NCBI RefSeq assembly: GCF_900112135.1
Contig: NZ_FOLC01000004.1
Coordinates: 1 to 64,000, forward strand
Length of the DNA: 64,000 nt
Source of the DNA: Collimonas sp. OK412
Lineage (GTDB): Bacteria > Pseudomonadota > Gammaproteobacteria > Burkholderiales > Burkholderiaceae_D
Direction of reading: 5' to 3'
The notes beneath the pieces were generated by a model. It ran no database searches and was not told where the DNA came from. It saw only the letters and a program-made list of their open reading frames with translations. Shown piece after piece: positions 1 to 4,280 of this stretch. Made by a program: the position numbers and the translations under genes. The first letter of the stretch is position 1. Each line of letters opens with the position of its first letter.

Positions 1-330
1 CAACTCGGCGGCAGAACGCGCTTTGCGCGGCGTCGCGATCGGCCGCCGCAACTATCTGTTTGCCGGTGCCGACAGCGGCGGCGAACGCGCTGCCGCCATC
101 TACTCCTTGATCGGTACGGCCAAGCTCAATGGTGTCGATCCTGGGGCTTGGTTGCGTCATGTGCTGACCCATATCGCCGACCATCCGGTCAACCGCGTTG
201 ACGATTTCCTACCCTGGAACTGCGCCGCGCAGATCGCTCCTGCCTGAAAAACACGCCGCTTCCCAGCGGTGTGATGCCATCATCGGGCAAGTCAACACCC
301 GGTTCAAGACGTCGCTGGCACGACGCTTAC
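1..330 (+). mobile_element. right end of an IS66-family insertion sequence (partial)
   Basis: The window opens inside the transposase gene of an IS66-type element. The coding frame ends at 247 and is followed by about 80 non-coding bases that finish with cacgacgcttac at 319-330. The reverse complement starts GTAAGCGTCGTG, the GTAAGCG-type terminus known from IS66 elements. The eight bases at 331-338 would be one copy of the expected target duplication; the other copy lies outside the window. The left part of the element is not visible. Confidence 0.7.
2..247 (+). CDS. tnpC: IS66 family transposase (TnpC), C-terminal part
   Basis: The frame is open from base 2 and reads [17 protein letters not shown] and so on to a stop at 245-247, giving about 81 residues. 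The blocks [27 protein letters not shown] and a DHPVNR..DFLPWN ending are the usual C-terminal domain of the IS66 transposase, the DDE subunit of this three-gene family. The start lies upstream of the window, so intactness cannot be judged. The final IAPA residues after LPWN are a little shorter than in many relatives. Confidence 0.85.
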
Positions 331-475
331 TCTTGAAATGCCTAAGCGCCGAGAGATCTCTCTCAATGAAATCTGGTCACGAATGTGCCAGCGTCGAATA
401 ATTCCAATTAAAGCCACGTCGATCACTCCAAACTCCTACCTGATTGCTTAGGTAGGATTGTGTCTCAAACTGGAG
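331..475. other. short stretch between two insertion sequences, with nested inverted repeats
   Basis: No convincing gene is present. A short frame from 338 to 451 starts MPKRREISLNE and could be a remnant of a transposase N-terminus, but it is only 37 codons. At 435-456 the arms cctacct/aggtagg form a 7-bp stem. An outer pair, actcca at 426-431 and tggagt at 471-476, encloses it. The adjoining IS1111-type element begins at the outer right arm, so this hairpin may be its target. Confidence 0.4.
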
Positions 476-481
476 TAATGG

Positions 482-494
482 TATGGACGCCCTC
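482..494 (+). repeat. IS1111-type left subterminal inverted repeat
   Basis: The sequence tatggacgccctc is the exact reverse complement of 1812-1824. It lies 56 bp upstream of the transposase start. Known IS1111 elements carry such repeats a few bases inside the real ends. Confidence 0.85.
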
Positions 495-550
495 TCTCAG
501 GGGGAGGTAGGTTTAAAGTTGAGATTCCTCAACCCTCCAAGGAGTCCACC

Positions 551-1582
551 ATGGAAGCGCATACGATAGGGATTGATCTGGCGAAGAACCTCTTTCAAGT
601 CCACGGCGTAGATCGGCATGGTCAGCTAGCGCTATGCAAAAAACTGCGTCGTTCCGAGATGGCAGCATTTTTTGCGAAGTTGCCCCCAGCGCTGATTGGC
701 ATGGAAGCTTGCGGCGGGGCCCATCATTGGGCGCGTAAGCTGGCAGCTTTCGGCCATCAGGTTCGCTTGATGCCGGCTGAATTTGTAAAACCCTACGTCA
801 AGAGCAACAAGAGCGATATGCGCGATGCGGAAGCCATCTGCGAAGCGGTCGCGCGACCGACGATGCGATTCGTTGCGGTGAAATCTATTGAACAACAAGC
901 TATCCTTTCGTTGCATCGGGCACGGGAAGGTGCGGTGAAGGCCCGTACGGCGCAAGCCAACCAGATCCGCGGCCTGCTCACCGAATACGGCATGGTTTTG
1001 CCGCAAGGGATCGTTCATATTGAGAAGATGTTGCCGTCAATGCTGGCTGACATGCACAATGCATTGCCAGGATTTCTGATTCAGCTGTTCCAAATTTTGC
1101 TGGATAATTTCCGCCATCTTGATCAACTTGCGCAAGAGATTGAGAATGCGATTCGACGCTGGCATCTGGCAAACGAAGAAAGTCGGCGACTCGAGCAGAT
1201 TCCTGGAGTCGGGCCACTGACTGCTACGGCATTAGTCGCCACCATCGGTGAAGCAAAAACATTTCACAACGGGCGACAGTTCGCAGCCTGGCTTGGTCTT
1301 GTTCCGCGACAGCACTCCTCTGGCGGTAGGGAGCGATTACTCGGTATCAGCAAGCGCGGCGACACCTATTTGCGCAAGCTGCTCATCCACGGCGGTCGAG
1401 CGGTCGTTCGCTATGCCGATAGGCATCCGAGTCAATACAACGGCTGGCTTGCCAACTTACTTGCCAGACGACACAAGAACGTCGTCGCTGTGGCGCTGGC
1501 CAACAAAAATGCTCGGATAGCCTGGGCACTGCTGGCGAAAGGACGGGTGTTCTGTCCAGATCCGGTGCTGGTAGAAGCATAA
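551..1582 (+). CDS. IS110 family RNA-guided transposase (recombinase), IS1111 subgroup
   Basis: 343 residues, full length for the family. The N-terminal RuvC-like DEDD domain shows GIDLAKNLFQVHG with D9, MEACGG with E52, and SDMRDAEAI with D89 and D92. The C-terminal Tnp domain contains the helix-hairpin-like IPGVGPLTATAL (about 217-228), then HSSGGRERLLGISKRGD and a YLRKLLIHGGRAV helix. The conserved serine used by IS110 enzymes lies in that region. A strong ribosome site, aaggag, sits 7 bases before the ATG. Enzymes of this family are known to join donor and target DNA using a guide RNA from the element's own non-coding end. No frameshift is visible, so it is potentially active. Confidence 0.93.
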   Translation: MEAHTIGIDLAKNLFQVHGVDRHGQLALCKKLRRSEMAAFFAKLPPALIGMEACGGAHHWARKLAAFGHQVRLMPAEFVKPYVKSNKSDMRDAEAICEAVARPTMRFVAVKSIEQQAILSLHRAREGAVKARTAQANQIRGLLTEYGMVLPQGIVHIEKMLPSMLADMHNALPGFLIQLFQILLDNFRHLDQLAQEIENAIRRWHLANEESRRLEQIPGVGPLTATALVATIGEAKTFHNGRQFAAWLGLVPRQHSSGGRERLLGISKRGDTYLRKLLIHGGRAVVRYADRHPSQYNGWLANLLARRHKNVVAVALANKNARIAWALLAKGRVFCPDPVLVEA

Positions 1583-1811
1583 AACGTTGTGCAGGTAATC
1601 CACCTTTGATTGCAGAGGTATCTCGACGTAATGGCGAAATTGGTAAGACCGCGGTTGATCAAGCCTGAGGGGTTCAGGGACAAACAAGTCCGTTGGAGTG
1701 ATTGAGGCATCAACCGGCAAATTCCATTAGGGTCCAGGCTTTGCCAATGAGACCGAATATATGGATGCAATCTAACCTTTCACCGTGAAACCGAATTACT
1801 GCTTGCAAATT
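1583..1811 (+). ncRNA. candidate bridge/seek RNA region of the IS1111-type element
   Basis: The 229 bp between the transposase stop and the right inverted repeat contain no gene. In IS1111-type elements the guide RNA is known to come from this 3' end. Four segments behave like guides. Segment 1662-1676 is complementary over 15 bases, with one G-U pair, to the right flank 1827-1841. Segment 1694-1702 (tggagtgat) equals left flank 471-479 except for one change that would be a G-U pair. Segment 1757-1765 (atatatgga) is complementary to the right end 1819-1827. Segment 1628-1634 (gtaatgg) equals 475-481 at the left end. RNA ends and fold are not determined. Confidence 0.6.
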
Positions 1812-1824
1812 GAGGGCGTCCATA
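1812..1824 (-). repeat. IS1111-type right subterminal inverted repeat
   Basis: The sequence gagggcgtccata is the exact reverse complement of 482-494. It is followed by tat and then by the flank tgaacccctc. The 132 bp from 1828 to 1959 beyond it are AT-rich and hold no gene that I can recognise. Confidence 0.85.
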
Positions 1825-1959
1825 TATGAACCCCTCGGGCTGGACCAACAGGCCGCTTCAAACCCATATGTGCAACGCAAGATTAGTAACTATTATCCAA
1901 ATTAGCTATTTTTTGTAATTTTTAGAAAAAATACTGGCTAAGAATATCCCAGTTAATAG

Positions 1960-2259: not shown

Positions 2260-2358
2260 TCGGAAGCATGAAACGACGCTTACGATCATCGCCAGCCACA
2301 AAATGGGTCAATCCGGTACGCAAATCTACAGTTTTCGACTTTAATTGCAAGAAATAGT

Positions 2359-2428
2359 AGTTAGCATCCTTGTTCTACGAGTCGTCGCACAGTTAGCAAC
2401 TTTATTAGCCAGTTAGCATCTTTGTTCT
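2359..2428 (+). repeat. three spaced copies of an AGTTAGCA motif, IS-end-like
   Basis: agttagcatccttgttct at 2359-2376 and agttagcatctttgttct at 2411-2428 differ at one base in 18. A third partial copy, agttagcaacttt, starts at 2391. Multiple short direct repeats next to transposase debris resemble the repeated ends of IS21-type elements. No istA or istB gene is present, so the origin is uncertain. Confidence 0.45.
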
Positions 2429-2462
2429 GAAGGACCATCACCATTAGGGGCGTAACGGCACC

Positions 2463-4280
2463 TTATTCGACAGTAACCGACTTAGCCAAATTACGCGGCT
2501 TATCCACATCCGTCCCGCGCGCCAGCGCCGTGTGATACGCCAGCAGCTGCAGCGGCACCACATGCAGGATAGGCGACAGCAGGCCATAGTTTTCCGGCAG
2601 CCGGATCACGTGCACGCCATCGCTCGACCTGATATGCGAATCGGCATCGGCAAAAACGTAGAGCTGGCCGCCGCGGGCGCGCACTTCCTGCATGTTCGAT
2701 TTGAGTTTCTCGATCAGCGTGTCGTTCGGCGCCACAGTCACCACCGGCATTTCCTCTGTCACCAGCGCCAGCGGGCCGTGCTTGAGTTCGCCGGCGGCGT
2801 AGGCTTCGGCGTGGATGTAGGTGATTTCCTTGAGCTTCAGCGCGCCTTCCAGCGCGATCGGATAGTGGATGCCGCGGCCCAGGAACAGGGCGTTTTCCTT
2901 GCGGGCGAAGGCTTCGGCCCAGGCCACGATGTGCGGCTCCAGCGCCAGCACGCTTTGCAGCGCTGCAGGCAGGTGGCGCACCGCTTTCAGGTGGGCGGCT
3001 TCTGCTTCGTCGCTGAGTCGGCCTTTGCTTTGCGCCAGCGCCAGGGTCAGCAGAAATAGTGCGACCAGCTGGGTGGTGAAGGCCTTGGTCGAGGCGACGC
3101 CGACTTCGACGCCGGCGCGGGTGATGTAAGCCAGCGCGCATTCGCGCACCATGGCGCTGGTGGCGACGTTGCAGATGGTCAGGGTATGTTGCATGCCCAG
3201 GGCGCGGGCGTGCTTGAGCGCGGCCAGGGTGTCGGCGGTTTCGCCGCTTTGGGTGATGGTGACCACCAGCGAATTTGGATTTGGCACGCTGTCTCGGTAG
3301 CGGTATTCGCTGGCGATTTCGACGTTGACCGGGATCTTGGCGATCGATTCGATCCAGTATTTTGCAGTCAGGCCGGCGTAATAGCTGGTGCCGCAGGCCA
3401 GGATCAGGACCGAATCGATCTGCTTGAACACTTTGAATGCACCGTCACCGAACAATTCCGGCATGATGGCGGTGACGCCTTCGAGGGTGCTGGCAATCGC
3501 GCGCGGCTGTTCGAAAATTTCCTTTTGCATATAGTGCTGGTACGGGCCCAGCTCAACCGCGCTGCTGTAGGCATGCACGGTCTTGACTTCGCGTTCCACC
3601 GCTTTGCCGGCGGCGTCGACGATCCAGACGCGCTGCAGCTGCAGGTCGACCACGTCGCCTTCTTCCAGGTAAATGATCTGGTCGGTGGTGCCGGCCAGCG
3701 CCATGGCGTCGGAGGCGACGAAGTTCTGGCCTTTGCCGATGCCGACGATCAATGGCGAACCCTGGCGGGCGGCGACTACGCGATGCGGTTCGTCGACGCA
3801 GAACACGGCGATCGCGTAAGCGCCGGCCAGGCGTTTCACGGCCTGCTGCACGGTGGCGAACAGGTCACCGTTATACATGTGGTCGACCAAGTGGGCGATG
3901 ACCTCGGTGTCGGTCTGGCTTTCGAACTGATAACCGGCGGTTTGCAGTTCGGCGCGCAGTTCGTCGTGGTTTTCAATGATGCCGTTGTGGACAAGGGCGA
4001 TGCGGTCGCGCGAGAAATGCGGGTGGGCATTGTGGGTGGCCGGCGCGCCGTGGGTTGCCCAGCGCGTGTGCGCGATGCCGGTGAAACCCGACAGGCTGGC
4101 TTTCTCGACCTGGAATTCCAGGTCGGCCACGCGTGATGTGCTGCGCGAACGCTGCAATTTTCCATCCATGTGCAAGGCGACGCCGCAAGAGTCGTAACCG
4201 CGGTATTCGAGCCGCTTCAATCCTTCCAGCAGGATGGGCGTGACATTAATTTGGGCAACTGCTGCGACGATACCGCACAT
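2463..4280 (-). CDS. glmS: glutamine--fructose-6-phosphate aminotransferase (isomerizing)
   Basis: 605 residues. It makes glucosamine-6-phosphate from fructose-6-phosphate and glutamine, the entry step to UDP-GlcNAc. The N-terminal amidotransferase domain starts MCGIVAA, with Cys2 as nucleophile after Met removal, and has HTRWATHG and HNGIIEN. Two SIS sugar-isomerase domains follow (about 285-415 and 455-590), with ACGTSYYAG and TQSGETADT. The C-tail [12 protein letters not shown] carries the catalytic lysine at 600. It is divergent from an Lrp-type regulator over 160 AT-rich bases. glmU, two steps on in the same pathway, lies 660 bp beyond its start. No glmS ribozyme is seen. Confidence 0.97.

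What the first reader, a model, noticed from the sequence alone, without database searches (positions are those of the whole stretch)
1628..1841. IS1111-type element whose 3' end matches its own flanks and end like a bridge/seek guide RNA
Seen directly: 1662-1676 is complementary to right flank 1827-1841 over 15 bases with one G-U pair; 1694-1702 equals left flank 471-479 except one position that would still pair as G-U; 1757-1765 is complementary to the element's right end 1819-1827; 1628-1634 equals 475-481 at the left end. Known: IS110-family enzymes use a guide RNA with target and donor loops, encoded in the 3' end in the IS1111 group. Inference: this copy inserted here guided by this RNA, with a core AT at 478-479 / 1826-1827. 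The original target would read tggagtaAT-gaacccctc. The long right guide (15 bases) would give high specificity.
Basis: partly seen in the sequence, partly recalled or inferred. Interest (0 to 1): 0.8.

Follow-up and report, generated by a model that had tools for sequence, protein, structure and literature searches.

The report
RNA-guided jumping gene targeting IS3 ends
A bacterial jumping gene carries a guide RNA whose sequence matches both the site it jumps into (the tip of another kind of jumping gene) and its own ends; relatives confirm this with corrections, and the end-matching part had been uncertain for this group.

Summary
Window 476-1826 is an intact IS1111-group insertion sequence with a DEDD transposase, 12-bp subterminal inverted repeats, 7/3-bp extensions and a 3' guide-RNA region. 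The target is the terminal inverted repeat of an IS3-family element. Target guides are 1662-1676 (right) and 1693-1701 (left).

Both proposed end matches need other readings. 1628-1634 fits the 5' strand of a conserved RNA stem. 1757-1765 only looks complementary to the right end because ATATAT is palindromic. Across 66 sTIR-delimited elements (44 discovery, 22 hold-out) that segment is same-sense: 65 of 66 match the last three bases of the right end plus the first base of the left end, including 34 of 34 with a right end other than ATA. It is a left donor guide. A right donor guide (1723-1729) covaries with left-end bases 6-7. Guide order is RTG-LTG-RDG-LDG.

It is a new member of a known kind. 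The gain is family-wide covariation support for IS1111 donor guides, which lie too far downstream to be in the published short seekRNA.

The parts
476..1826 (+). IS1111-group insertion sequence, 1351 bp (477-1827 is equivalent because T476 and T1827 are the same base)
   Evidence: sTIR plus 7/3 extensions; empty sites TGGA[G/C]|TGAACCCC in other genomes; single full copy in the own genome
471..475 (+). left half of target, TGGAG
1827..1848 (+). right half of target, TGAACCCCTCGGGCTGGACCAA, IS3-family terminal-repeat sequence
476..482 (+). left 7-bp extension TAATGGT (right donor; bases 1 and 3-7 are pairing candidates)
483..494 (+). left subterminal inverted repeat ATGGACGCCCTC
1812..1823 (+). 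right subterminal inverted repeat GAGGGCGTCCAT
1824..1826 (+). right 3-bp extension ATA (left donor)
551..1582 (+). transposase, 343 aa, open, with D9, E52, D89, D92 and S257-G258 of the DEDD and GL-P----SG motifs
   Evidence: Pfam PF01548 and PF02371; NCBIfam NF033542, 360.1 bits; motif positions
1629..1634 (+).
   Evidence: consensus fold; not present in the single-sequence minimum-energy fold
1653..1658 (+). P2 stem, 5' strand (partner 1710-1715)
1662..1676 (+). right target guide (RTG), complementary to 1827-1841; 1664-1666 is also the 5' strand of stem P3 (partner 1705-1707)
1678..1691 (+). P4 hairpin between the two target guides (1678-1681/1688-1691)
1693..1701 (+). left target guide (LTG), same-sense as target TTGGAG|TGA; family-wide covariation covers 1694-1699
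1723..1729 (+). right donor guide (RDG) candidate, complementary to left-end bases 1-6 (476-481); covariation at left-end bases 6 and 7
1731..1754 (+). P5 hairpin between the two donor guides (1731-1734/1751-1754)
1758..1763 (+). left donor guide (LDG), TATATG, same-sense as the right end plus core (1823-1826 plus T)

Best explanation
An IS1111-group element whose 3' region encodes a guide RNA with four guides in the order RTG, LTG, RDG, LDG. The first pair, separated by a hairpin, pairs with the two strands of a target that is the terminal repeat of an IS3-family element (TTGGA[G/C]|TGAACCCCTCGGGC). [quoted passage not shown] The DEDD transposase then recombines target and circularised element at the shared core base T. 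Shown here by sequence: element limits, empty and filled sites, covariation of LTG, RTG and LDG, and covariation of RDG at two positions. Inferred: that the region is transcribed and loaded, that it pairs, and that a circle is formed, all by analogy with ISEc11 and IS621.
For: sTIR, 7/3 extensions and a downstream NCR. Empty versus filled sites. Blind mutual-information scan of 43 elements: the leading pairs are left-flank bases -1 to -5 with 1694-1698, left-end base 1 with 1762 and 1699, right-extension bases with 1759-1760, left-end base 6 with 1724. Permutation tests: LDG versus right extension 130 of 132 against 92.6 expected in discovery, 66 of 66 against 44.0 in hold-out; LDG core base 43 of 44 and 22 of 22. 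All four LDG positions match in 65 of 66 elements; the exception is L017. On a transposase tree the right-extension bases and left-end base 1 changed at least 5, 13, 3 and 10 times, and the joint states needed only 5, 14, 4 and 11 changes. RDG: left-end base 6 complementary in 58 of 65, base 7 in 41 of 65. Delimiting ISEc11 by the same rules gives 1443 bp, the published length, and its RNA reads ATAAA = right end ATA plus left end AA.
Against: PMC11187229 reports that the 82-nt short seekRNA alone supports ISEc11 transposition, better (42%) than the 154-nt form (about 15%); in ISEc11 the RTG start to LDG end spans 99 nt, so that RNA cannot hold both. RDG evidence is ambiguous: base 1724 pairs with left-end base 6 in 58 of 65 and with RNA base 1634 in 57 of 65; of 11 discordant elements 6 follow the left end and 5 the RNA stem. 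Left-end base 2 shows no support (16 of 43 and 4 of 22, near the null). The window's own minimum-energy fold does not form P1 and pairs 1724-1727 with 1761-1764 instead. Left target guide positions beyond five bases are at chance (18 of 85, 9 of 44). In a loose RTG scan only 30 of 64 elements scored their own target above all others. A clade-linked pair with no pairing logic (sTIR base 7 with 1715) also reached z 10 in the scan.
Confidence: 0.8

Rival explanations
1. Target-only seekRNA: the RNA recognises the target, while the transposase recognises the ends through the sTIR; the LDG match has another role or is a by-product of how new elements arise.
For: The 82-nt seekRNA of ISEc11 suffices for transposition in PMC11187229 (passages and sections read), and the LDG cannot lie in an 82-nt RNA that also holds the RTG. 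Long near-perfect sTIRs are present in every element counted, by selection.
Against: LDG follows the right extension in 34 of 34 elements with a non-ATA extension and over many independent changes, and in a hold-out (66 of 66). A by-product would decay.
Confidence: 0.2
2. One reading: insertion at tggagtaAT|gaacccctc with core AT, 1628-1634 as left-end guide and 1757-1765 as complement of the right end.
For: All four letter matches are present in this copy.
Confidence: 0.02
3. Shared ancestry rather than pairing: ends and RNA segment are inherited together, so they look matched.
For: One clade-linked pair without pairing logic reached z 10, and the elements are related.
Against: Identity, not mere association, at each position; at least 5, 13, 3 and 10 independent changes of the end bases with the RNA following; hold-out 66 of 66 with two right extensions (ATC, ACG) not seen in discovery.
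Confidence: 0.03

Closest known systems
ISEc11 and the IS1111 seekRNA (PMC11187229)
   Same: DEDD transposase of the same group, sTIR with 7/3 extensions, downstream NCR, top-strand guide before bottom-strand guide, guides overlapping at the core
   Different: Different target; that paper describes target matches only, and gives no role for the long RNA; here donor guides are placed outside the span of the short form
IS621 bridge RNA (PMC11208160, PMC11208158)
   Same: Four guides in two loops, each pair separated by a stem-loop; left guides pair with the bottom strand, right guides with the top strand; core base included
   Different: RNA is 3' of the gene rather than 5'; right guide precedes left guide in both loops here, the reverse of IS621 as described in those papers; long sTIR; only the first core base is shared between target and donor
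IS4321/IS5075 (IS1111 group; recalled, and title seen in reference lists)
   Same: IS1111-group elements that insert into the terminal inverted repeats of another mobile element
   Different: Their host elements are Tn21-family transposons; here it is an IS3-family element

Membership tests
IS1111 group (IS110 family) | DEDD transposase of about 330-350 aa with Pfam DEDD_Tnp_IS110 and Transposase_20 domains and a GL-P----S(t)G motif | tested here: met
   343 aa; PF01548 and PF02371 above cut-off; NF033542 360.1 bits; GLVPRQHSSG at 249
IS1111 group (IS110 family) | Subterminal inverted repeats of about 11-13 bp with 7-bp left and 3-bp right extensions | tested here: met
   12 bp perfect, 483-494/1812-1823; limits agree with empty sites
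IS1111 group (IS110 family) | Long non-coding region downstream of the transposase | tested here: met
   229 bp between stop codon and right sTIR
IS1111 group (IS110 family) | Top-strand target guide 5' of bottom-strand target guide in the NCR | tested here: met
   1662-1676 before 1693-1701; covariation over 66 elements
IS1111 group (IS110 family) | No target duplication | tested here: met
   Filled and empty sites differ by the element only, one shared T
IS1111 group (IS110 family) | NCR RNA bound to transposase; circular intermediate | not testable with these tools
   needs RNA and protein work
Bridge RNA (donor-recognising guide RNA) | Left donor guide same-sense as left donor, covarying with it | tested here: met
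   65 of 66 elements at four positions; hold-out 22 of 22
Bridge RNA (donor-recognising guide RNA) | Right donor guide complementary to right donor, covarying with it | tested here: inconclusive
   left-end bases 6 and 7 covary (58 of 65, 41 of 65), base 2 does not; an RNA stem explains base 6 equally well
Bridge RNA (donor-recognising guide RNA) | Donor guides needed for recombination | not testable with these tools
   needs mutants; a published short RNA without room for the LDG is active (PMC11187229)
Described Rfam RNA family | Match to a covariance model | tested here: not met
   window 400-1900, no match at E up to 1

The most novel reading that the evidence does not exclude
IS1111 elements encode a complete bridge RNA with the guide order of both loops inverted relative to IS621. 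The long seekRNA is the donor-reading form and the short seekRNA a target-only product. The right donor guide is held in a stem whose other strand (UGAUGG/UAAUGG) imitates the element's left end, so that left-end DNA could displace it when the circle junction is bound.
Probability: 0.4. Interest if true: 0.7.

Novelty: new member of a known kind. Interest (0 to 1): 0.5.

Why it matters
Two published models disagree about IS1111 elements: one gives their RNA target guides only, the other proposed donor guides from manual inspection of a few elements. The covariation found here over 66 elements, with a hold-out, says evolution keeps a segment of the RNA matched to the element's own junctioned ends. 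That makes a direct experiment possible (change the right extension and the LDG, singly and together, with long and short RNA) and would matter for reprogramming these compact systems. The target, the terminal repeat of an IS3-family element, shows one jumping gene specialised on the tip of another.

Tried and rejected
Rfam gave nothing. A same-locus empty site was sought with both window flanks in 15 congeners: only pieces of dispersed repeats matched, so no allelic empty site was found; the empty sites used are other copies of the target. Left-end base 2 as part of the RDG was tested and is not supported. Extension of the left target guide beyond five bases is not supported family-wide.

Rows left out: of 57 loci in the discovery set 44 were delimited; 13 were dropped for no clear sTIR or a cut contig. 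Of 27 hold-out loci 22 were delimited under a rule that required a TG[G/A] start in the sTIR, 5 were dropped. In the discovery set the repeat pair was picked by hand from the printed candidates, and L013 and L150 were re-anchored by hand before the RNA alignment was seen. The scan used 43 of the 44; the RTG scan used 64 of 66; the consensus fold used 55 of 66 (L129 left out for Ns, ten more left out without a test). L129 carries Ns in the NCR; L111 has only two bases of right flank.

Full report
What was checked. The four letter matches are present at the stated coordinates. The 15-base complement to the right flank is unlikely by chance: 1 of 5000 random 20-base flanks from the window gave as long a run from its first base.

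What it is. Window 551-1582 encodes a 343-aa IS110-family transposase. A perfect 12-bp inverted repeat, ATGGACGCCCTC at 483-494 and GAGGGCGTCCAT at 1812-1823, lies 7 bp and 3 bp inside the ends of a 1351-bp element, 476-1826. These are the defining ends of the IS1111 group as given in PMC11187229 (parts 1-3 of the text, sections 13 and 14 and passages read; figures not seen). The own genome holds one full copy and a 61-bp right-end match on another contig.

Where it sits. A right-flank pattern with up to one mismatch was searched in 60 genomes: 13 had a match, 23 places in all. Reading each place: 8 are filled, that is, they follow a right end like this element's; 2 are unrelated sequence; 13 are unfilled. 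Of the 13 unfilled, 11 have TGGAG or TGGAC directly before TGAACCCC and 2 do not (L087, L099). A further unfilled TGGAG site (L045) and a further, diverged filled site (L103) came. Two solitary left ends follow GTGGAC (L108) and GCGGAG (L109). So the empty site is TTGGA[G/C]|TGAACCCCTCGGGC, and the element begins after TGGAG in the window. In one congener two copies of the site face each other 1283 bp apart around an IS3-family transposase gene, so the target is the terminal inverted repeat of an IS3-family element. Other filled copies run on into interior sequence of that IS3 element, on either side of it (G004 and G007). The window's own copy of the repeat has no recognisable IS3 interior beside it and is taken as a relic (inference).

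Target guides. 1694-1701 matches the rejoined site 8 of 8; with base 1693 it reads TTGGAGTGA, as in the unfilled sites L046, L081 and L091. 1662-1676 pairs with the right half. In 44 elements delimited only by their ends, left-flank bases -5 to -1 equal RNA positions 1694-1698 in 186 of 215 cells against 59.4 after shuffling; right-flank bases 1-9 are complementary in 195 of 389 against 110.8. In 22 hold-out elements the figures are 97 of 110 against 31.5 and 120 of 198 against 62.1. Beyond five left bases the match is at chance. A looser scan for the right guide put the own target above all others in only 30 of 64 elements.

Donor guides. Right extensions other than ATA decide the matter. There are 34 such elements (ACA 11, AGA 8, GTA 7, CTA 3, GCA 2, AGG, ATC and ACG one each); RNA positions 1759-1761 equal the extension in 34 of 34, while the reverse-complement reading holds in 2 of 34. 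With ATA it is 31 of 32 (L017 fails). Position 1762 equals the first base of the left end in 65 of 66. Where that base differs from the first base of the right flank (8 elements), 1762 follows the left end in 7. The segment therefore copies the junction right end|left end of the circular form. On a tree of the 66 transposases the three extension bases and left-end base 1 changed at least 5, 13, 3 and 10 times, with 5, 14, 4 and 11 joint changes, so shared ancestry is not enough to explain it. A blind scan of all RNA columns against all end positions found the same pairs. The same scan also gave a clade-linked pair without pairing logic (sTIR base 7), so z-scores alone are not trusted.

The other donor half is less sure. 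RNA positions 1724 and 1723 are complementary to left-end bases 6 and 7 in 58 and 41 of 65 elements, and in hold-out 21 of 22 and 14 of 22 against 10.9 and 5.7 expected. But 1724 also pairs with RNA base 1634 in 57 of 65. Of 11 elements in which the two disagree, 6 follow the left end and 5 the RNA stem. Left-end base 2 shows no support.

RNA architecture. The consensus fold of 55 elements has 26 pairs, 20 of them with at least one change on both sides: P1 (1629-1634/1724-1729), P2, P3, a hairpin P4 between the target guides and a hairpin P5 between the RDG and the LDG. The order is RTG, P4, LTG, then RDG, P5, LDG. IS621 as described in PMC11208160 and PMC11208158 (section 12 of the former and passages of both) has left before right in both loops. 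The window's own minimum-energy fold (z -2.3; 4 of 200 shuffles as low) has P2, P3, P4 and P5 but not P1; it pairs 1724-1727 with 1761-1764.

Positive control. ISEc11 on a plasmid record, delimited by the same rules, is 1443 bp, the published length; its RNA carries CAGTATTTT and GTGAAAATA, which fit the published target GTGAAAATACTG, then TACAT against left-end ATGTA, then ATAAA = right end ATA plus left end AA. From the first base of the RTG to the last of the LDG is 99 nt and from P1 to the LDG end 142 nt (IS positions 1241-1382). So the published 82-nt RNA, if it holds the RTG, cannot hold the LDG, whereas a 154-nt RNA can; the mapped ends of those RNAs are in figures that were not seen. 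That short RNA was nevertheless active in the published assay, which counts against an essential donor guide.

What is known and what is new. PMC11208160 predicted donor-binding nucleotides in IS1111 RNAs from manual inspection of six elements of the family, three of each group. PMC11187229 describes target matches only. Searches of the held library showed no later paper on IS1111 donor guides; the library holds CC-licensed PMC papers only, so absence there is weak. The element is a new member of a known kind; the family-wide covariation with hold-out is the addition. Insertion into another element's terminal repeat is known for IS4321/IS5075 with Tn21-family transposons (recalled; title seen in reference lists).

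Noticed in passing
window 1-330: C-terminal part of what looks like an IS66-type transposase (recalled family name, not searched) and its end; window 240-330 matches four more contigs of the own genome at 100% and a fifth (240-334) at 99%, so it is a multi-copy element.
   Followed up: no
window 331-470: A dispersed repeat of about 110-140 bp with 74-85% matches in many congeners, ending right where TGGAG begins. Copies elsewhere run on into GTGGGTCAATTTT, which recalls the end of an IS21-type element.
   Followed up: partly
window 2300-2460: Short pieces here (motifs such as GTTAGCATCTTTGTTCTGAAGGACCA) recur at several places of the own genome and of congeners, next to glmS at 2463-4280.
   Followed up: no
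L102 (G004:C179): A nearly identical 3' fragment of this element also lies beside a glmS 3' end, so the region downstream of glmS collects mobile-element pieces in this genus; glmS is read from the protein (recalled).
   Followed up: no
L103 (G014:C29, about 1620-1868): A diverged, decayed copy whose left target guide reads CTGGACTGG, fitting the TGGAC form of the IS3 repeat instead of TGGAG.
   Followed up: partly
window 551-1582: The transposase also matches the TIGR-Tas endonuclease model weakly (33 bits, cut-off 100).
   Followed up: no
L017 (G081:C19): The only one of 66 elements whose LDG (AGTC) does not match its right extension plus left-end base; a second IS110-type copy lies beside it, so the ends may be mixed.
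   Followed up: no
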